Positions 2,966-14,323 of a DNA stretch of 64,000 nt are shown piece after piece. Position 1 is the stretch's first letter. Each line of letters opens with the position of its first letter. Under the pieces are notes generated by a model, which saw only the letters and a program-made list of their open reading frames with translations, was not told the origin of the DNA and ran no database searches. The position numbers and the translations under genes were made by a program. Source of the stretch: Westiellopsis prolifica IICB1 (GTDB lineage Bacteria > Cyanobacteriota > Cyanobacteriia > Cyanobacteriales > Nostocaceae); assembly GCF_004323185.1 (NCBI RefSeq), contig NZ_NAPS01000001.1, positions 1,262,354-1,326,353 of the forward strand, written 5' to 3'.

Positions 2966-3916
2966 ATGCCCAACATTAGTATTTGTATTCCAACTTTTAA
3001 CCGAGTTAAACTTTTACCTTTTGCCATTGACAGCGTACTACAGCAGACTTACCAAGATTTAGAATTAATCATTTGTGATGATGGTTCATGTGATAGTACA
3101 TCCAAATTAATTTCACAATACACAGATAGTCGAATTATATATATTCAACATTCGCAAAATATCGGTAAAAGCAATAATATGCGCTCTGGTTTTGAGGCTG
3201 CTACAGGTGAATATTTTATCAAGTTTGATGATGATGACAGATTAACACCAGATTTTTTAGAACGTACTGCTAAGATTTTAGATCAAGATTATAGTATTGA
3301 TTTTGTTGGTACTGATCACTGGATTATTGATATTAACAATATTAGAGATGAGGCAAAAACTCAAGAAAATTCTCGTCGCTGGGGTAGAGAAAATTTAGCA
3401 CCAGGTATTGTAGATAATTTATTAGAAATAGTCTTTATTCAACAAAGCTTCCAAATTGGTGCAACTTTATTTCGTCGTCAAACTTTGTCAGAGTTAGGGT
3501 TTATGCAACCTAATTGGCAAAATTGCGAAGACAATGATTTATTTGTCCGTCTGGCTTTGGCAGGTAAAAAGGGTTACTATTTACCAGAGTTATTAATGGA
3601 ATATCGCGTACATGCAGAACAGCAAGGAATCAATCGCGCTATTCCTTATTTGCAGGATAAATTGCAGTATTTAAGTAATTACAAATTTGAATCAGAGAAG
3701 TTAGAGAAAGTTAGATTACAGCGTCTTGCAGAAACGCAGTTATTGTTAGGTTTGCGGTTAATTGAAAAAGGAGAAATTCAAAAAGGTAGAGAGTTAGTTG
3801 TCGCAGGTAAGTCTTTTTATCACCCTAAAGCGTGGATTGGGTTAGGGTTATCGTTTTTACCTCAGGGTGTGAGAGGGAAGGTGTTTGAGGTATTGCGACA
3901 GGTGCGGGGATCGTAA
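2966..3916 (+). CDS. GT2-family glycosyltransferase
   Basis: A 316-residue GT-A glycosyltransferase. Residues 1-110 carry the classic GT2 start (NISICIPTFNR), the LIICDDGS nucleotide-binding motif and the FDDDDR metal-binding DxD region near residue 90. About residue 190 the CEDNDLFVRLA segment is the ED acceptor/catalytic-base region. The C-terminal 80 residues are helical with no known domain. It is probably a cytoplasmic enzyme adding a sugar in exopolysaccharide or lipopolysaccharide synthesis. It is on the same strand as the preceding gene, 183 bp away. The gap holds a widespread cyanobacterial repeat (the tctctgtgtactctgtg type), so co-transcription is uncertain. Confidence 0.9.
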   Translation: MPNISICIPTFNRVKLLPFAIDSVLQQTYQDLELIICDDGSCDSTSKLISQYTDSRIIYIQHSQNIGKSNNMRSGFEAATGEYFIKFDDDDRLTPDFLERTAKILDQDYSIDFVGTDHWIIDINNIRDEAKTQENSRRWGRENLAPGIVDNLLEIVFIQQSFQIGATLFRRQTLSELGFMQPNWQNCEDNDLFVRLALAGKKGYYLPELLMEYRVHAEQQGINRAIPYLQDKLQYLSNYKFESEKLEKVRLQRLAETQLLLGLRLIEKGEIQKGRELVVAGKSFYHPKAWIGLGLSFLPQGVRGKVFEVLRQVRGS

Positions 3917-4113: not shown

Positions 4114-4959
4114 ATGGATACTAATGAGTTAAAGTTTTTACTAAGGCTGTTGGGATGTTCTAACTATCGCTCAAGCCTTAGTGCTAGCATTTTCCAAAGT
4201 TTCAAAGGAAAAGACAAGATATGTCAAAATTTAGGCGATCGCGAACTGTTAGATTTTTCCCGTGAGATTGCGACAGTCAAAATTTTATCACCTGGTCAAG
4301 CACTGCTGAAACTTGACTCAGCAGAATTACCGATTACAGATAAAGAACGTAAGGTTTTAGAAAAGCTAAGTCAAACTTCAGGCAAAATCAATCCTAGCAA
4401 GATTACCTCACCAAAAGCCGCAGAACGAGACGCAATACTGAAAAATCTGAGCGATCGCGGATTGATTGAAGTCGAACTTAAAATCAAGAGGACGAAAGCT
4501 GAGGTTTGGTTGACTGAACGCGGAATTGAGTATTTGCGGGATGATTATAATCCCAAAGGAGCCGCAAACATCAGCTTGGATCTGCTAAATAATTACCTGC
4601 GTTTTTTGCGGAAAACTCTGAAACTCATACCAGAGCAAGTATCTGTTTCAGCACCTGAGATTGCAGAGTCAGGTGTTGAGACGATTATCAATATCAGTGA
4701 TGAAGAAATTTTAGAAATCATCCAGAAATTAGATAAAGAGCTTGGAACTGATAATTATTTGCCGATATTCCATTTGCGGCAAAAATTACAACCCCCATTG
4801 TCACGGGATGATTTGGATAAGGCGCTGTATCGTTTGCAGAGTCATGATCAAATTGAGTTCAGTACTCTATTAGATCCGACACCATATACTCCAGAACAAG
4901 TTGACGCTGGAATTCAACAAAATGTTGGTGGTTCACTGTTTTTTATCAGTTTGAACTAG
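4114..4959 (+). CDS. Winged-helix-like protein, first gene of the nuclease/FtsK/ParA module
   Basis: A 281-residue protein I cannot place in a named family. Residues 80-155 look like a winged helix: a helical part (ITDKERKVLEKLSQ), a second helix of the AERDAILKNLSDRGLI type, then a beta wing with TKAEVWLTERG. A second such unit may lie at about 205-275 (EEILEIIQKLDKELG, then HLRQKLQPPLSRDDLDKALYRLQ). There are no membrane segments or catalytic motifs. It leads a same-strand run: the ATPase starts 60 bp downstream, followed by the nuclease-translocase fusion and ParA. It could be the DNA-binding or regulatory subunit of that module, which is inference from context. Confidence 0.6.
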   Translation: MDTNELKFLLRLLGCSNYRSSLSASIFQSFKGKDKICQNLGDRELLDFSREIATVKILSPGQALLKLDSAELPITDKERKVLEKLSQTSGKINPSKITSPKAAERDAILKNLSDRGLIEVELKIKRTKAEVWLTERGIEYLRDDYNPKGAANISLDLLNNYLRFLRKTLKLIPEQVSVSAPEIAESGVETIINISDEEILEIIQKLDKELGTDNYLPIFHLRQKLQPPLSRDDLDKALYRLQSHDQIEFSTLLDPTPYTPEQVDAGIQQNVGGSLFFISLN

Positions 4960-5019
4960 CAATAAAAACTGCAATTTTACACATTATTAAAGTTCGCTCT
5001 CTCATTAAAATTTTTAAGT

Positions 5020-7149
5020 ATGACATCAATTAATGACATTATTAAGCGTGAGGTTAATCCGTTTGACCTGGTAAATTTGAGAATAGGTAATTTCTGGACT
5101 GAACATCAAGATTCCAAATCTGTTGTTGAATCTATCCATCAAGAAGCAATCAGTGAGATTGAAGAAATATTAGACTTAGTGGGGATGGATCATCGTAGTC
5201 GTACTACATTGCTTATAGGTGATTCTGGTTCTGGCAAAAGTTATTTACTTGGTAGACTCAAGCGCACACTTAATCCTAAAGCCTTTTTCGCCTATATAGG
5301 TCCTTGGGCTGATAATGACTATATTTGGCGACATGTTTTGCGTTATACAGTTGATAGCTTAATCCAAGTACCAGAGGGACAAAAAGAGTCCCAGTTACTC
5401 CTATGGCTTAAAAGCTTGTCTGCGTTTACTCAACGTAGTCTCAAACAGCGTATTTTTAATGATAAGATTTGGCAAATATTACAAAGCGATCGCCAAAAAT
5501 TTATTAAACATCTCAAGGATAACTATCAACAGGCAGGTATTTATAATCCTGAAGTTTTTTTCGGAGTGCTACACGATTTGACAGATCCTGAGCTTTATCC
5601 CATAGCCTGCGAGTGGTTAAAAGGAGATGACTTAAGTGAAGAATCAATGCAAGCTTTAAAAGTAAAACACTGCATTGATACTGAAGATGCAGCAAAAAAT
5701 ATATTAGCTAACTTTGGCAAAATTTCTACTGATACTCAACCAATTGTTTTATGTTTCGACCAAGTTGAAGCATCAGTAAATTTTGATTCAAACTCTCAAC
5801 CTATTTTTAATATTAATACTACTATTCACAACGACAATCTCAAAAATTTTTTAATAATTATCAGCATAGTTAAGGATAACTGGATACGCTGCAAAAACCG
5901 TATTCTACAGTCAGATAAGGCTCGAATTGAGAGGTTAGTATCACTAAAACCTATTAATTTAAATCAAGCAAAATCGCTTTGGGCTGATAAATTACAACCA
6001 TTACACCAACAAGCAAATCCCAAACCTAATTCACCTATTTATCCCTTAAGCAATCAATTATTAGAAGAAAATTTCCCAGGTGGAAAAACAATGCCAAGAA
6101 ATGCTTTAATCTTGGGAAGATTAGAGTATCAAAAACATAAACTTCTATTAGGTAATGCCGAAGTAAAAATCTCTATTACACCTCAGACAATCTCTTCGCC
6201 CAAAGAAATATCAAAAAATAACAATAAGCCGATTATTACACTTATAACTAAACAGTCTGATAAAATAATTGCTCCAAAAACTCGAGAAAGTAATATAGCT
6301 GAATTCCAACTTTTATGGCAGCAGGAATTTAAGAAAATTCAACATAAGATAGGTAAAATATCTCTTTTGGCAGCACCTGATTTAATTAGTATGGTACAAG
6401 AGGCTTTAGAAGCATTACAAATACAATCAATTAAGCCAAAACTGCTCAAAGGTAAATACGCTAGTTATTCTTTAAGTTATCAAACACCTAATAAGCAAGA
6501 CATAATAGGAATAGTCTGGACAGAAGATGCTAACATGACAAGTTTTTTTAACATAATGAATGCTTGTCATAAAACAATTCAGCAAAACCTTTGTCAAAGC
6601 TTGTTTTTAATTAGAATTGGAAGTGTAGGAAACGCAAAACTTGTAGGTCATAAAATTTATAAACAAATTTTCACAGGTACTAAACATCATCACATTAAGC
6701 CAAATCTTTCCTCTGTTCATTACTTAGCAACATACCATAGCTTAGTAAATTCTGCTATCGCTCAGGAATTGGTACTTGGTGGTAAAGCTATCACTTTACA
6801 AGAACTAAAATCTTTAACTCGTGAAACTGAAATTTTACATAAATGTGCTTTGTTGCAGGATTTAGGGATTATTTCTAAACAAGATCCTGATGAAGATGAT
6901 AGTAATGGTACAAATGGCAAAAAAGATTTACGACCAGTTAAAGAATTTATGTTCAATCTAGTTACAACCCAAAATTATATGGGTGTACTAACTTTAATAT
7001 CACAATCTGTTCATCAGTTTCCTTATGTTAATGAAACTGAAATCCAACACTTGATTGATTTATTATGTCAAGAACGTAAAGTGAAAATTATTAATCCCAA
7101 AGCTAAATTACAAGATCAATTAATTTGTCTACTAAATAAAAATAATTAA
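5020..7149 (+). CDS. Large P-loop ATPase of the nuclease/FtsK module
   Basis: A 709-residue AAA/STAND-like ATPase. The Walker A motif GDSGSGKS is near residue 68 and the Walker B-like strand PIVLCFDQVE is near residue 245. The ATPase core covers about residues 35-370. The region 375-440 is low-complexity and Lys/Asn-rich. The remainder (440-709) has no recognised domain and ends in what may be a winged-helix-like segment. The N-terminus (VNPFDLVNLRIGNFW) resembles the leader of ATPases found in some defence loci, but I cannot assign a family. Its 10-bp gap to the nuclease-translocase gene indicates one transcript. It may recognise DNA or remodel a partner complex. Confidence 0.65.
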   Translation: MTSINDIIKREVNPFDLVNLRIGNFWTEHQDSKSVVESIHQEAISEIEEILDLVGMDHRSRTTLLIGDSGSGKSYLLGRLKRTLNPKAFFAYIGPWADNDYIWRHVLRYTVDSLIQVPEGQKESQLLLWLKSLSAFTQRSLKQRIFNDKIWQILQSDRQKFIKHLKDNYQQAGIYNPEVFFGVLHDLTDPELYPIACEWLKGDDLSEESMQALKVKHCIDTEDAAKNILANFGKISTDTQPIVLCFDQVEASVNFDSNSQPIFNINTTIHNDNLKNFLIIISIVKDNWIRCKNRILQSDKARIERLVSLKPINLNQAKSLWADKLQPLHQQANPKPNSPIYPLSNQLLEENFPGGKTMPRNALILGRLEYQKHKLLLGNAEVKISITPQTISSPKEISKNNNKPIITLITKQSDKIIAPKTRESNIAEFQLLWQQEFKKIQHKIGKISLLAAPDLISMVQEALEALQIQSIKPKLLKGKYASYSLSYQTPNKQDIIGIVWTEDANMTSFFNIMNACHKTIQQNLCQSLFLIRIGSVGNAKLVGHKIYKQIFTGTKHHHIKPNLSSVHYLATYHSLVNSAIAQELVLGGKAITLQELKSLTRETEILHKCALLQDLGIISKQDPDEDDSNGTNGKKDLRPVKEFMFNLVTTQNYMGVLTLISQSVHQFPYVNETEIQHLIDLLCQERKVKIINPKAKLQDQLICLLNKNN

Positions 7150-7159
7150 TTTTTAGCTA

Positions 7160-9709
7160 ATGCAATACCTGAAAGAATCTCATGGAATTAGGACGCAGAT
7201 AGAAAAATTTGCACTGTACACAACTCTATGGTTAGATACAGAAATTGCAGATTGGCATACTTATTATCCAAAATTGTCATTAATTCAGGTACTGACAGAG
7301 CCTAACGATTATTCAGGGAAATCTGCTTATATTATTGATGTATTAGGAAAGCCTGATTTGGTTTTACAGTTTATTAACCAAATCATGATTAATCCCAAAA
7401 TTGAAAAGGTATTTCATAATGCTAGTTTTGATTTAAAGTATTTAGGCAGTAATTCTGCACAAAATGTTACTTGTACTCTCAAAATAGCCAGAAAGATTGG
7501 TAAAGGTATTTTAGAAGTATCTAATTTGCAACTCAAGACATTAGCTACTGAATTATGTCACTTTTCTGATGTAGACAAAGAAGAACAGGGAAGTGATTGG
7601 AAAAAGCGTCCTTTAACAGAAAAGCAGCTACATTATGCAGCTATGGATACAGTATATTTAGCTGCTGTACATAGATACTTATTAGAATTTTGTAATCCAA
7701 ATACTGTCAGTAATATTTTTGCTCATATGTCTAATACCTCAAAAGACTCAAAAGATTTATTTAGAAACTTATCTTTATCTGCTACTAAAGCTAGAGTTGC
7801 TTTTGAGTGTCCTCGCCTATTTTATTTACATCAGCATTTTGGTGGCAATAGTTTATTTATGCCATCAGATAATAAGCTTGGTATTGGTAATGTATTTCAT
7901 TATTTAGCAGATGAATTTATCAATTTAGCTGCTGGTGAACCAAAATTTCAAGAATTATTTAAACTTGGCGCATCTCAATTAAAAATAGAAGAAATAGCCT
8001 TTACTATGCAGCAGCTTTTTTATCAAATTAAATTTTCTGATTATTTAGAAAAAGCTGTAGCTAAAGATATTAACCAAGCACAACCATTATTAAATGTTTG
8101 GCAAGGATTACAAGGACTAATTCGCAAATTTGCAGAATTGCTGGTGAGCAATCGACGTTATTGCAGTGCAGAAAAGCTGATTAGTAACACTTTTATATTA
8201 GAAGAACGTAAACTTGAGCATAATTTTGATTTACCTAATGGAACCAAACAAAGAGTAGCAGGAGAATTTGATTGCTTAGTTTTCAACTTTGAACTCAAGC
8301 GCCTTTGTGTAGTTGAATTTAAAACCTATCAACCTGTAGATCCGTCCGCACAATTAGCCCAAGTTGCACTCTATAGTTATATGCTGTGGCAAAAGAAGAA
8401 AGTAGCTGTTGATTCAGCAGTATATTGTGTTTTGCCAGAGTTTAAAGAATATCAATATTCTTGGGAAGAATTAGAAAATACTGTGCATCAGTTGATTCCT
8501 TATAAGCTACAACAAATGCAGCAATGGCTGACATGGGAACCACCTCATCCAAATCCACCACCACCGACAACTCAACCTCATCTGTGTGAAATTTGTCCAC
8601 AAAAACAAAAGTGTCAAACTTATTTTGTTTCAACAGACATTTCTTCTCAAGTTGAGAGTCAGGAATCTGTCAATGCTGATGCTATTGGTGAAGAATTGGT
8701 TGCTACTCTGCAATCTTTTAAAATCATGGTTGACTACCAAGGAGCTATCGTTGGTTCAGCTTTTATCCGCGTGAAGTTGAAACCTCATCTTGGTGTAAGT
8801 GTTAACTCGATTTTGCGCTTATCTAAAGATTTGCAAGTGCAGTTGGGATTGACAAATCCTCCTTTCATTGCACCTCAAGCTGGCTATGTCAGTATAGATT
8901 TACCTCGTTCAGATAGACAAGTCGCTAGGTTTGCAGATTATATCAACTCACAGGTATTAGCTGCCACAGCACCAGTGAAAATTGCCATCGGGATAAATTT
9001 AGATGGAGAGTTAGTAGAAGCTGATTTATCTGATCCGAATACTTGTCACTTTTTGGTTGGGGGTACGACAGGAAGTGGTAAAAGTGAATTTTTGCGATCG
9101 CTCCTTCTCAGTCTGATCTATCGTTATTCTACACAACACCTTAAAATTGCCCTTGTCGATCCTAAACGAGTGACATTTCCAGAGTTTGAGCAGATGTCAT
9201 GGTTGTATGCGCCTATTGTCAAAGATGGCGATCGCGCTATTGAATTAATGGATGAACTGGTAACAGAAATGGAAACTCGCTACCAGCAGTTTGAAAAAGC
9301 CGGATATGCTGATCTAACTACATATAATCAAAGATCTCGCCAACCTTTACCTCGGATTGTCTGTATTTTTGATGAATACGCCGATTTTATGGCAGAAAAA
9401 GAAATTCGCACAGCATTAGAACAAAATATTAAACGATTGGGTGCAATGGCTAGAGCTGCTGGAATTCATCTGATTATTGCCACTCAACGCCCAGAAGCTA
9501 AAATAGTAACTCCCATTATTCGCTCAAATTTACCAGGGCGAGTCGCCCTACGTACTGCTAGTGAAGCAGATTCAAAAATTATTCTCGGAGGTACAGAAAC
9601 AGCAGCTGCATATTTATTAGGTAAAGGTGATTTACTTTACCAAATTGGTTCTAAACTACAGAGGTTACAAAGTCTGTTTGCTAGTAATATTCAAATTCCT
9701 TCTATATAA
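7160..9709 (+). CDS. Exonuclease / Fe-S nuclease / FtsK translocase triple fusion
   Basis: An 849-residue fusion of three DNA-acting domains. Residues 20-175 are an RNase D-like DEDDy 3'-5' exonuclease with all motifs: D26-x-E28, N87-x3-D91 and Y159-x3-D163. Residues 205-490 are a PD-(D/E)XK nuclease of the Cas4/AddB/Dna2 type: the active site is D371 and E386-x-K388, and four cysteines (C217, C476, C479, C485) are spaced for a 4Fe-4S cluster. Residues 505-849 are a SpoIIIE/FtsK motor with Walker A GGTTGSGKS (634-642), DPKR, Walker B CIFDEY (D738, E739) and ATQRPEA. FtsK's membrane domain and gamma DNA-reading domain are absent. The protein should track along and degrade DNA. It sits between the ATPase and ParA genes. 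I know of no named family with this architecture. Confidence 0.85.
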   Translation: MQYLKESHGIRTQIEKFALYTTLWLDTEIADWHTYYPKLSLIQVLTEPNDYSGKSAYIIDVLGKPDLVLQFINQIMINPKIEKVFHNASFDLKYLGSNSAQNVTCTLKIARKIGKGILEVSNLQLKTLATELCHFSDVDKEEQGSDWKKRPLTEKQLHYAAMDTVYLAAVHRYLLEFCNPNTVSNIFAHMSNTSKDSKDLFRNLSLSATKARVAFECPRLFYLHQHFGGNSLFMPSDNKLGIGNVFHYLADEFINLAAGEPKFQELFKLGASQLKIEEIAFTMQQLFYQIKFSDYLEKAVAKDINQAQPLLNVWQGLQGLIRKFAELLVSNRRYCSAEKLISNTFILEERKLEHNFDLPNGTKQRVAGEFDCLVFNFELKRLCVVEFKTYQPVDPSAQLAQVALYSYMLWQKKKVAVDSAVYCVLPEFKEYQYSWEELENTVHQLIPYKLQQMQQWLTWEPPHPNPPPPTTQPHLCEICPQKQKCQTYFVSTDISSQVESQESVNADAIGEELVATLQSFKIMVDYQGAIVGSAFIRVKLKPHLGVSVNSILRLSKDLQVQLGLTNPPFIAPQAGYVSIDLPRSDRQVARFADYINSQVLAATAPVKIAIGINLDGELVEADLSDPNTCHFLVGGTTGSGKSEFLRSLLLSLIYRYSTQHLKIALVDPKRVTFPEFEQMSWLYAPIVKDGDRAIELMDELVTEMETRYQQFEKAGYADLTTYNQRSRQPLPRIVCIFDEYADFMAEKEIRTALEQNIKRLGAMARAAGIHLIIATQRPEAKIVTPIIRSNLPGRVALRTASEADSKIILGGTETAAAYLLGKGDLLYQIGSKLQRLQSLFASNIQIPSI

Positions 9710-9860
9710 ACCAAACGCGCCCCTCACTGGTATAATGCTGACTGCTCAATCAATAATTATTTTCGCAAGTCGGAAAATCTTAAAATTACCGAAAGTTTTG
9801 GCTCAACAACAAAATGTTTATGTCAATTAGATGGGAATGCGTGATCAAAGGATTTAAGAA

Positions 9861-10757
9861 ATGGGATATGTAATTGCAACTGCAAATATGAAAGGTGGGG
9901 TTGGTAAAACAACTCTCAGCGTCAATATCGCAACTTGTTTAGCGAAAGAACATGGCAAACGAGTACTTGTGCTGGACTTAGATAGCCAAATTAGTGCAAC
10001 ACTGAGTCTCATGTCGCCGATGGAGTTTGCGAAGCGCCGAAAACACAGAAAGACATTTAGGTATCTGATAGATCAAATTATCAATCCAGAGCCAGAACAA
10101 AAATATACAATTCAAGACATTATTCAATCCCAGGTTTGTAATCTCCCAGGATTAGATTTATTACCAGGAGATATTGATTTGTATGATGAATTTGTAGTTT
10201 CGGAAATGCTGCACTACCAGGCGATTAATTTAGGTGTAACTGAGTTTGAAACTATTTGGAATCGTTTTGAAAGAGTCTTGCTGAGTAAAGTTTTAGAACC
10301 TGTGCGTCAAGCATATGATTTTATTATTCTAGACTGCGCTCCAGGATATAATCTTTTGACTCGGAGTGCTTTGGCTACTAGCAATTTTTATATTCTTCCT
10401 GCCAAGCCTGAACCTTTGTCTGTAGTCGGTATTCAGTTATTAGAAAGACGCGTTGCCCAGTTAAAAGAAAGCCACGAACACGAAGCCAAAATAGATATTC
10501 AAATGCTGGGAATTGTCTTTACAATGTCGAATGCTAATTTGTTAACTGGTAGATACTACAAACAAGTGATGCAACGTGTTCATCAAGACTTTGGTGCAGA
10601 AAAAATATGTCAAACTCAAATTCCAGTTGATGTGAATGTTGCCAAAGCTGTTGATAGTTTTATGCCTGTGATTTTGAATGCTCCTCAATCATCAGGTTCT
10701 AAATCATTTTCTCAGTTAACCCAAGAATTGTTGCAAAAACTCAAAATGTATACATAG
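9861..10757 (+). CDS. ParA-family partition-like ATPase
   Basis: A 298-residue ParA/MinD-type ATPase. It starts MGYVIATANMKGGVGKT, the deviant Walker A motif with its signature lysine, followed by LVLDLDSQ and the switch II/Walker B strand FIILDCAPG near residue 157. Such ATPases form ATP-dependent dimers on DNA or membranes and position cargo such as plasmids. No parB gene or obvious parS array lies next to it. It follows the triple-fusion gene on the same strand after 151 bp, so it may belong to that module, possibly positioning it on the nucleoid, but it could also have its own promoter. An inverted repeat with 12-bp arms (10777-10823) lies just beyond its stop codon. Confidence 0.85.
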   Translation: MGYVIATANMKGGVGKTTLSVNIATCLAKEHGKRVLVLDLDSQISATLSLMSPMEFAKRRKHRKTFRYLIDQIINPEPEQKYTIQDIIQSQVCNLPGLDLLPGDIDLYDEFVVSEMLHYQAINLGVTEFETIWNRFERVLLSKVLEPVRQAYDFIILDCAPGYNLLTRSALATSNFYILPAKPEPLSVVGIQLLERRVAQLKESHEHEAKIDIQMLGIVFTMSNANLLTGRYYKQVMQRVHQDFGAEKICQTQIPVDVNVAKAVDSFMPVILNAPQSSGSKSFSQLTQELLQKLKMYT

Positions 10758-12826: not shown

Positions 12827-14008
12827 TTAACCTTTCACACAAACAACTTGTTTGAGTGTAGCTACAACTTCTACTAAATCTGCTTGGTTTGCCATTACTT
12901 GCTCGATAGGTTTATACGCACCAGGAATTTCATCCAAAACACCTGTATCTTTGCGACATTCTACACCCTTTGTTTGCTCGATTAAATCATCAAGAGTATA
13001 GACATTTTTTGCCTTATTTCTTGATAGTAAACGTCCAGCACCATGGCTACAAGAACAGAAACTATTAGCACAACCTTTACCTTTGACAATAAAAGATTTT
13101 GCTCCCATCGAACCAGGGATAATACCATAATCTTCTGTTTGGGCGCGAACTGCACCTTTGCGAGTTACATATACTTCCTCACCAAAATGTAATTCTTTTT
13201 CAGCATAGTTATGATGGCAATTTACCTCTAATAAAGGTTTTGTCACCTTCCCACCCGCTAGATGCTTTTCGATAATGCGCTTGAAACGCACCATCATCAC
13301 ATCGCGGTTAAAACGTGCATATTCTTGCGCCCACTGTAAATCGTGCCAATAGGATTTAAATTCTCGTGTATTAGCGACAAAATAAGCTAAATCTGGATCA
13401 GGTAATTTATTTCCTGCCATTTTTGCTAATTCTTTAGCTGTACTAATGTGAGACTGCGCCAGCATATTGCCAATATTACGCGAACCAGAATGCAGCATTA
13501 ACCAAACTTGGTTCTCTGTATCGAGACAAACTTCTACAAAGTGATTTCCGCCACCGAGAGAACCCATTTGTCGCATCGCTTTTTCTTGTAAGTTTTGTAC
13601 TCCTGGATGCAAGTCTTTAAATTCTCGCCAATTTTGCCAATTAGTTACAGATTTTTCAACTTCTTTATTCTCGTTAAAACCTGTAGGAATTGCTGCTTCA
13701 ATATCCAGGCGAATTTTCTTGAGTTTTCCTTCTAATTGTTCTCCTTGAAAGGGTGTTTTGATAGCAGCCATACCACAACCAATATCAACACCTACAGCCG
13801 CAGGAATAATTGCTTCTTTGGTTGCAATCACAGAACCAACTAAGGCTCCTTTACCTAAGTGAACATCTGGCATTAATGCGACGTGTTTAAATACAAATGG
13901 TAGTGAAGCCACATTTTTTGCCATCTTGGTTTCTTCTGAACCCAAGGGGTGATTTGCCCAAGATAAAACTGGGGATGCTGTGGAGATTTCTAACTCTTCG
14001 TAAGGCAT
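12827..14008 (-). CDS. rtcB: RtcB-type RNA ligase
   Basis: A 393-residue RtcB family RNA ligase, which joins 2',3'-cyclic phosphate or 3'-phosphate ends to 5'-OH ends with GTP and Mn2+, acting in tRNA or RNA repair in the cytoplasm. The metal-binding motifs are present in order: ALMPDVHLGKG, GVDIGCGM with the metal-ligand cysteine, GGGNHFVEV, HSGSRNIG, HHNYAE, and CSHGAGR with the histidine that accepts GMP. The frame opens at a TTG at 14056, but the ATG at 14008 (MPYEELEIST) matches the usual family start. No archease gene is adjacent. A hairpin terminator follows at 12599-12629. Confidence 0.92.
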   Translation of the reverse strand: MPYEELEISTASPVLSWANHPLGSEETKMAKNVASLPFVFKHVALMPDVHLGKGALVGSVIATKEAIIPAAVGVDIGCGMAAIKTPFQGEQLEGKLKKIRLDIEAAIPTGFNENKEVEKSVTNWQNWREFKDLHPGVQNLQEKAMRQMGSLGGGNHFVEVCLDTENQVWLMLHSGSRNIGNMLAQSHISTAKELAKMAGNKLPDPDLAYFVANTREFKSYWHDLQWAQEYARFNRDVMMVRFKRIIEKHLAGGKVTKPLLEVNCHHNYAEKELHFGEEVYVTRKGAVRAQTEDYGIIPGSMGAKSFIVKGKGCANSFCSCSHGAGRLLSRNKAKNVYTLDDLIEQTKGVECRKDTGVLDEIPGAYKPIEQVMANQADLVEVVATLKQVVCVKG

Positions 14009-14323
14009 AATTTTTTCAAAATTAATCGCTAGTATTTGCTTGGTAATTGTTAACAAAAGATAATAAGTAACAAAAATAACTCATCATAACTTTTGAAATC
14101 ATAAATCGCTACCTTTGCCAGGTAGTTGCTTAGTATTACATTTGTAGTATAAAGATAATCTAAATGTCAATCTAATTTCTCAATCAACTGCTCTACCCAC
14201 AAGGGGACGGGGTTTTACGCGCGAGCAATAAAAAACCTGGTTCGACAAAAATATATTACAATTTGTAAATAAAATGAATGTTATGGATACAAATTCAAAA
14301 GCTCATCAATTCTCAAAAATCCT

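What the first reader, a model, noticed from the sequence alone, without database searches (positions are those of the whole stretch)
4114..10757. Undescribed four-gene nuclease/translocase/ParA module
A winged-helix-like protein, a large P-loop ATPase, a three-domain nuclease-translocase and a ParA ATPase lie on one strand with gaps of 60, 10 and 151 bp. Nuclease plus ATP-driven motor plus an ATPase of unknown type is the pattern of DNA defence or recombination systems, yet the set matches no system I can name. A plasmid-derived DNA segregation module is the main alternative, because of ParA.
Basis: partly seen in the sequence, partly recalled or inferred. Interest (0 to 1): 0.88.

Follow-up and report, generated by a model that had tools for sequence, protein, structure and literature searches.

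The report
Predicted cyanobacterial DNA-destroying defence operon
Three neighbouring cyanobacterial genes appear to build a machine that loads onto, pumps and shreds DNA, probably invading DNA; the fourth gene in the finding looks like a long-standing neighbour rather than a part of the machine.

Summary
All four genes are present at the stated coordinates. The first three (P1-P3) form a conserved cyanobacterial operon. P1 carries winged helices. P2 is an Orc/Cdc6-fold AAA+ ATPase with an insert and a C-terminal winged helix. P3 joins an NrnC/RNase D-type exonuclease, a Cas4/RecB-like nuclease with four invariant cysteines, FtsK-alpha and an FtsK motor. This set fits a class already described computationally: the Orc/CDC6-coupled 'HerA/FtsK capture' systems of Rakesh, Aravind and Krishnan 2024, proposed as anti-invader systems. 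I found no experimental test in the listings and passages I saw. The fourth gene (ParA) is a near-universal, slowly evolving chromosomal gene of the family (42 of 43 genomes); it occurs without the module, and the module occurs without it.

New observations: (1) P2's ATPase domain is replaced between lineages while its surroundings are not. (2) The same chromosomal site often holds a ParB plus REase-ParA cassette instead. In 43 sampled relatives an intact P3 and an intact cassette never co-occur (0 both, 21 P3 only, 19 cassette only, 3 neither); elsewhere at least 9 of 78 loci hold both. Defence against invading DNA is the best reading and is inferred. Interest is moderate; the novelty lies in the context, not the core.

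The parts
4114..4959 (+). P1: winged-helix protein (281 aa), predicted three wHTH-like units; DndG-like role inferred
   Evidence: AF2 model m04a319a72aa3 mean pLDDT 78.6; VIA-align MarR-type wHTH Z 10.4, rmsd 1.9, 67 aligned; upstream of P2 in 41 of 46 sampled and 75 of 78 named loci
5020..7149 (+). P2: Orc/Cdc6-fold AAA+ ATPase (about residues 40-378), insert of possibly REase-like topology (421-600, no D..(D/E)xK seen by eye), C-terminal wHTH-like end (638-709)
   Evidence: AF2 model m45dfee2bc14e mean pLDDT 85.7; best PDB matches ORC, archaeal Cdc6/Orc1, TnsC; Walker A G67, G72, K73 in 55 of 55
7160..9709 (+). P3: DEDDy 3'-5' exonuclease (1-190), PD-(D/E)xK nuclease with four invariant cysteines (205-486), FtsK-alpha (499-582), FtsK/SpoIIIE motor (602-778)
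   Evidence: Pfam; motif residues invariant or nearly so in 30 rows; PDB profile matches FtsK 4e-66, diDNase ancestor/NrnC 1e-16
9861..10757 (+). P4: chromosomal ParA-family ATPase; conserved neighbour, probably not a subunit
   Evidence: Pfam AAA_31; ortholog in 42 of 43 family genomes with or without P3; dN/dS 0.05-0.07 against 0.11-0.28 for P1-P3
1763..3916 (+). Two genes upstream: 1763-2782, no Pfam match, cluster c8; 2966-3916, family 2 glycosyltransferase, cluster c5. Conserved flank of the variable site
   Evidence: Pfam of both; clusters c8/c5, with c4 at 354-1625 (not scanned), in the neighbourhood comparison

Best explanation
P1-P3 are a chromosomal anti-invader system of the Orc/CDC6-coupled HerA/FtsK capture type. 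Proposed mechanism: P2, an Orc/Cdc6-like AAA+ ATPase, with its own winged helix and the winged helices of P1, loads on target DNA. Its variable ATPase domain meets the changing partner, either the invader's replication or segregation machinery or a feature of its DNA. P2/P1 then recruit P3, whose FtsK ring pumps duplex DNA into its RecB/Cas4-like nuclease, and the NrnC-like exonuclease trims the products. Shown here: domains, conserved catalytic residues, co-occurrence of P2 and P3, purifying selection, patchy loss, ATPase-domain replacement and use of a shared variable site. Inferred: complex formation, DNA as the target, the order of steps and protection against phages or plasmids. ParA (P4) is most likely an ancestral neighbour.
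For: Architecture fits the published class nearly feature by feature. Nuclease and motor residues are conserved: D371, K388, H247, Q401, Y405, C217/476/479/485, K641, D738, E739 in 30 of 30; E386 is E in 29 and D in 1. P3 regions never occur without P2 (38 of 38). Presence is patchy: 21 of 43 family genomes have an intact P3; one more (G305) has it split, and remnants are seen in G024, G042, G199, G251 and G385. The P2 AAA+ domain is replaced between lineages: against Fischerella muscicola nucleotide identity is 62-78% in all nine 150-bp steps from 5000 to 6349, with 80-93% in all other steps but two (72% at 4850, 76% at 6950); a clade of 8 in the AAA+ tree is rejected by the rest of the same protein, p-AU 0.00026. 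The site alternates with a ParB plus REase-ParA cassette. The module lies at 0.07-0.50 of a chromosome from dnaA in 10 genomes (by hand), which does not fit an origin- or terminus-bound segregation locus.
Against: No experiment. PADLOC has nothing for P1 or P2 and only part-length matches for P3 (best SspH over the FtsK region; also mad8, BrxH, HerA, Cas4, DEDDh). Defence islands around the module were not tested systematically; the plasmid copy lies beside an SNF2-type helicase that PADLOC scores like DpdE/ZorD, a single case and a generic helicase. All 78 kept relatives are cyanobacterial, and P2 was not found in viral contigs or phage records, so there is little sign of wide horizontal spread. 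Domain replacement also happens in non-defence genes. ParA adjacency is kept better than that of the other neighbours, which a pure neighbour reading does not explain well.
Confidence: 0.6

Rival explanations
1. The four genes are one functional module in which ParA positions or licenses the nuclease-translocase.
For: P3 and ParA lie within 4.5 kb in 18 of 22 family genomes with P3 regions, while P1 keeps the upstream glycosyltransferase clusters in 9 of 23 and ParA keeps ileS in 10 of 42 (some stretches end soon after ParA). A second ParA type fused to a nuclease domain, with a ParB, recurs at the same site.
Against: ParA ortholog in all 22 family genomes without intact P3; P1-P2-P3 without a ParA ortholog at E<=1e-60 in G051, G129, G229; module and ParA unlinked in other families (for example G002, G008, G054, G172); gap varies from about 100 bp to over 3.5 kb; ParA is under far stronger constraint.
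Confidence: 0.15
2. P1-P3 are a housekeeping DNA end-processing or recombination machine, comparable to HerA-NurA, Dna2 or AddAB.
For: FtsK-alpha/FtsK of the cellular type; RecB/Cas4-like nuclease with four invariant cysteines; purifying selection.
Against: Absent or decayed in about half of the family sample and in most of the phylum sample; replaced by another cassette at the same site; replacement of one domain of P2 is unexpected for a repair enzyme.
Confidence: 0.15
3. A plasmid-derived partition or segregation module fixed in the chromosome.
For: ParA neighbour; ParB plus ParA cassettes at the same site in relatives; one copy on a conjugative plasmid of Pseudanabaena PCC 7367.
Against: ParA's immediate neighbours in the window are not ParB; P2 in 1 of 72,556 plasmid records, and that copy has no ParA or replication gene among the 14 annotated features in the 20 kb shown, an incomplete annotation; chromosomal position relative to dnaA varies.
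Confidence: 0.08
4. A domesticated remnant of a mobile element kept without function in most genomes.
For: Frequent truncated, split or fragmentary copies.
Against: dN/dS of 0.11-0.28 for P1-P3 in the 8 genome pairs compared, and invariant catalytic residues.
Confidence: 0.05

Closest known systems
Orc/CDC6-coupled HerA/FtsK capture systems (Rakesh, Aravind, Krishnan 2024, PMC10853773; abstract and outline, sections 22 and 26, and search passages seen)
   Same: Orc/CDC6 AAA+ with an insert before the C-terminal wHTH, separate multi-wHTH protein, PD-(D/E)xK nuclease with its catalytic residues, FtsK-alpha plus FtsK motor, 3'-5' exonuclease fused to the FtsK protein
   Different: Whether the nuclease here, Cas4/RecB-like with four cysteines, belongs to one of their two REase families is unknown. 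Their main text does not contain ParA, cyanobacteri-, RecB or Cas4; ParB occurs only for the ParB superfamily in connection with DndB and in references. Their supplement was not read
DndFGH / SspFGH
   Same: wHTH protein, P-loop protein and large nuclease-FtsK protein; PADLOC SspH models match the FtsK region, E 3e-65
   Different: P3 is 849 aa; Pfam finds no helicase, TRD or methylase region in it; P2 is Orc/Cdc6-like
HerA-NurA and HerA-nuclease antiphage complexes (recalled)
   Same: Ring motor coupled to nuclease
   Different: Motor is of the FtsK type with FtsK-alpha, fused to two nuclease domains; HerA models match only weakly and in part
ParABS partition systems
   Same: P4 is a ParA ATPase
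   Different: No ParB beside it here; ParA is a core chromosomal gene of the family

Membership tests
Orc/CDC6-coupled HerA/FtsK capture system | Orc/CDC6-family AAA+ ATPase | tested here: met
   Best structural matches of the P2 model are ORC subunits and Cdc6 (5zr1_A Z 14.0, rmsd 5.1, 252 aligned; Foldseek 8s0e_D E 1.4e-4); other AAA+ such as RdrA and TnsC score close to them
Orc/CDC6-coupled HerA/FtsK capture system | Inactive REase between AAA+ and C-terminal wHTH | tested here: inconclusive
   Insert 421-600 mixes strands and helices in an order compatible with a REase fold and shows no D..(D/E)xK by eye; its fold was not searched alone
Orc/CDC6-coupled HerA/FtsK capture system | Active REase-superfamily nuclease | tested here: met
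   PDDEXK_1 in P3; D371, K388, Q401, Y405 in 30 of 30 and E386 E/D; by residues only, activity itself not testable
Orc/CDC6-coupled HerA/FtsK capture system | HerA/FtsK motor, one set with FtsK-alpha | tested here: met
   Pfam FtsK_SpoIIIE 5.5e-37 and FtsK_alpha 2.4e-7
[quoted passage not shown]
   P1 model: wHTH matches within 1-146; three units by predicted secondary structure, the third not confirmed by a fold match
Orc/CDC6-coupled HerA/FtsK capture system | 3'-5' exonuclease fused to the FtsK protein (subset) | tested here: met
   DNA_pol_A_exo1 2.6e-29; D26, E28, D91, D163, Y166 show gaps but no substitution in 30 rows
Orc/CDC6-coupled HerA/FtsK capture system | Sequence kinship with the published examples | not tested
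   Supplementary sequences not available
DndFGH / SspFGH | Large DndH of eight domains, about 1700 aa | tested here: not met
   P3 is 849 aa; Pfam finds none of those N-terminal domains
DndFGH / SspFGH | Association with phosphorothioation genes | tested here: inconclusive
   DndC in 36 of 38 genomes with P3 but also in 41 of 49 tested genomes without; in the own genome the dnd genes lie on another contig
ParABS partition system | ParB gene beside ParA | tested here: not met
   Neighbours of P4 are P3 and a DJ-1/PfpI gene; no member of the ParB cluster c7 in the first 20 kb of the window

The most novel reading that the evidence does not exclude
The site is a two-state immune locus: an Orc/Cdc6-FtsK nuclease operon and a ParB plus REase-ParA cassette are functionally alternative weapons, both built from captured replication and segregation machinery and both aimed at foreign replicons. 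The P2 ATPase domain would be the exchangeable recognition part. 'HerA/FtsK capture' would then extend to capture of ParAB parts.
Probability: 0.25. Interest if true: 0.78.

Novelty: new member of a known kind. Interest (0 to 1): 0.5.

Why it matters
The published class is a prediction; I saw no experiment on it in the paper listings and passages I looked at. A conserved cyanobacterial operon with an alternative state at the same chromosomal site makes the prediction directly testable. If the exclusion between FtsK-nuclease and REase-ParA cassettes is functional, it would link bacterial immunity to the segregation machinery of foreign DNA.

Tried and rejected
Four-gene module including ParA: rejected because ParA and P1-P3 occur independently, although adjacency is well kept.

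Plasmid partition system: rejected. Phage or viral origin of P2: no phage record and no confirmed viral contig. The viral and phage matches to P3 listed lie in the part from the end of the nuclease to FtsK (one search showed 15 of 187 records).

Replication-origin or terminus locus: distance to dnaA varies from 0.07 to 0.50 of the chromosome in 10 genomes with the module, computed by hand with contig lengths (two of them, G334 and G340, are in several contigs); G306 and G233 gave no DnaA match.

Coupling to phosphorothioation: DndC is so common in the order that it tells nothing.

Exonuclease domain captured from the neighbouring NrnC-like gene: the standalone genes (own genome and L142, L150, L153, L154) form one branch beside the P3 exonuclease domains, apart from one distant own-genome protein and two truncated P3 copies; direction not resolved.

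Exclusion of P3 and cassette is not absolute: of 78 named loci (chosen by P2) 16 hold the long ParA, and at least 9 of these (L086, L108, L115, L117, L123, L147, L150, L153, L154) also hold P3 with its motor; L144 has P3 and a shortened long-type ParA of 356 aa; L111, L114 and L122 have P3 without a complete motor. A first, stricter search with one cassette protein found it in only 6 of 64 genomes; the count used comes from the profile search, 25 of 64, of which 20 are in the family. Split genes are counted as lacking: G300's cassette and G305's P3. Counting both as present gives 1, 21, 19, 2, Fisher p 5.1e-9, sign test p 0.016-0.125. My first count took G305 as intact: 0, 22, 19, 2, p 2.6e-10.

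In one search two P4 rows are dropped (L086/L089, where a long ParA was compared with a P4; L150/L154, two long ParAs), and the P2 row of L150/L154 (53% identity) apparently compares non-orthologous copies.

Papers: PMC10853773 (abstract and outline, sections 22 and 26, search passages); PMC11706625, PMC12507012, PMC12704722 (search passages only). Searches for the class or for a cyanobacterial FtsK/ParA defence set in print. Beyond the papers named I saw only listings and abstract starts; none announces an experiment on this class, but most of those papers were not opened.

Not done: systematic PADLOC scan of neighbours, fold search of the P2 insert alone, structure of P3.
Full report
Observation. 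The four ORFs, their strand and the gaps of 60, 10 and 151 bp are as described. P3 has four recognisable domains, not three: a DEDDy exonuclease, a PD-(D/E)xK nuclease, FtsK-alpha and an FtsK motor. The simple scan found no terminator-like site in the 151 bp before ParA, and promoter- and terminator-like sites over the region are no more frequent than in shuffles, so the transcription units are undecided.

What P1-P3 are. P2's model (pLDDT 85.7) is an AAA+ domain, an insert and a C-terminal winged-helix-like end. The AAA+ part matches ORC subunits, archaeal Cdc6/Orc1 and TnsC best. P1 is built of winged helices. P3's nuclease keeps H247, D371, K388, Q401, Y405 and cysteines 217, 476, 479 and 485 in 30 of 30 rows, with E386 as E in 29 and D in 1; that such cysteines hold an iron-sulfur cluster, as in Cas4 and AddB, is recalled knowledge and not shown. 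The motor keeps K641, D738 and E739 in 30 of 30. The exonuclease domain is closest in the PDB to a diDNase ancestor, NrnC and RNase D chains and 52% identical to a separate gene in the same genome.

Distribution. Long P2 homologues occur in 46 of 386 sampled phylum genomes, plus one fragment; at the looser limit of 1e-3 there are 78, the rest being distant ATPases. P3's nuclease and motor regions occur in 38 of 386, all of which have P2. P1-P2-P3 are contiguous in 30 of 46 sampled and 67 of 78 named loci. In G002, G066, G298, G207, G051 and G233 P3 lies elsewhere on the chromosome or on another contig, yet is still present with P1-P2, which supports a functional tie. Of the 46 P2 genomes 8 have no such P3. 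In a genome-collection scan with a P2 alignment 208 stretches encode relatives; the 78 loci kept are all cyanobacterial by their titles. P2 is in 1 of 72,556 plasmid records and no phage record.

ParA. An ortholog is present in 98 of 386 genomes and 42 of 43 of the family at E<=1e-60, among them all 22 family genomes without an intact P3. G051, G129 and G229 have P1-P2-P3 and lack it. ParA is 94% identical to its ortholog in two Fischerella genomes with dN/dS 0.06, against 0.165-0.221 for P1-P3. On the other side, P3-ParA adjacency holds in 18 of 22 family genomes with P3 regions, more than for the flanking genes, so a weaker functional link is not excluded.

The variable site. In the window P1 follows genes of clusters c4, c8 and c5; c5 is a glycosyltransferase by Pfam and c4 looks like one by eye. 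In relatives the same flank is followed by P1-P2-P3, by a convergent cassette of a ParB-domain protein and a ParA with an N-terminal HSDR_N nuclease domain, or by both. In the 43 family genomes: P3 intact and cassette intact 0, P3 only 21, cassette only 19, neither 3; Fisher p 2.2e-9 (genes split into two ORFs, P3 of G305 and the cassette of G300, count as lacking; otherwise 1, 21, 19, 2). Two of the 21 (G101, G278) lack all or part of the exonuclease domain. Relatedness inflates that p. On a ParA tree of 42 genomes, 7 independent pairs on supported branches that differ in P3 showed the cassette going the other way in 6.1 on average, no difference in 0.9 and never the same way; sign test p median 0.031, range 0.016-0.063. 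Of 7 family genomes whose cassette is not next to ParA, 5 still have it beside the glycosyltransferase clusters. Named loci include at least 9 of 78 with both, so the exclusion is strong in the sample but not a law. Allelic replacement at one site explains it without any functional incompatibility; I cannot separate the two.

Domain replacement. Compared with Fischerella muscicola (L096), identity per 150 bp over the operon and ParA is 80-93% except 62-78% in the nine steps from 5000 to 6349, which is the P2 AAA+ domain with its linker, and single steps of 72% (4850) and 76% (6950); with F. thermalis (L151) the low tract runs from 4850 to about 8100. P2 dS is about twice or more that of its neighbours (1.03 against 0.44-0.54 and 1.71 against 0.54-0.64). 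In the AAA+ tree eight rows form a long-branched clade that the rest of P2 rejects (p-AU 0.00026). This is what an exchangeable recognition part would look like; it is not proof.

Known or new. Rakesh, Aravind and Krishnan describe the class in words that fit P1-P3 nearly item by item, including the exonuclease fused to FtsK and the FtsK-alpha version, and propose an anti-invader role. Their main text contains no ParA as a word, no cyanobacteri-, RecB or Cas4, and ParB only for the ParB superfamily in connection with DndB and in references; they note that ParB-family proteins may act as effectors in conflict (passage). I file P1-P3 as a member of that kind; the insert fold and kinship with their sequences were not settled. 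What seems new here is the ParA-linked variable site, the alternation with the REase-ParA cassette and the domain replacement; this rests on the searches listed under Tried and rejected.

Verdict. Most likely a working anti-invader system (0.6), with ParA a neighbour. Interest 0.5.

Noticed in passing
L080 5470-9479 (own genome C1:2125469-2129478): A second, HerA-less Orc/CDC6-type set: 222 aa protein (24% to P1), 621 aa ATPase (24% to P2's AAA+ part) and a 471 aa protein with a GGAGGIDI..GECKAGK nuclease-like motif, beside malate-dehydrogenase-like and MutM-like genes (named by eye).
   Followed up: partly
L241 2777-13533 (own genome C8): Phosphorothioation genes dndC, dndD, a dndB-like gene and an associated methyltransferase, with no dndFGH among the 7 ORFs scanned; dndC is in 42 of 43 genomes of the family.
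   Followed up: partly
L115:6019-7506, L148:11767-13272, L194:6979-8370 and others: ParA with N-terminal HSDR_N nuclease domain (E76, K78 of the L115 protein invariant in 16 rows) paired with a ParB-domain protein; PADLOC gives only weak, part-length matches.
   Followed up: partly
L135, L150, L154: Tandem P1-P2-P2' cassettes with two Orc/Cdc6-like ATPases beside P1-P2-P3; possibly a heteromeric ATPase.
   Followed up: no
L081 3349-13109 (Pseudanabaena PCC 7367 plasmid): Plasmid copy of P1-P2-P3 lacking the exonuclease domain, next to an SNF2-type helicase and a SWIM zinc-finger gene.
   Followed up: partly
window 12827-14056: RtcB family RNA ligase gene near the module (Pfam 1.3e-125).
   Followed up: no
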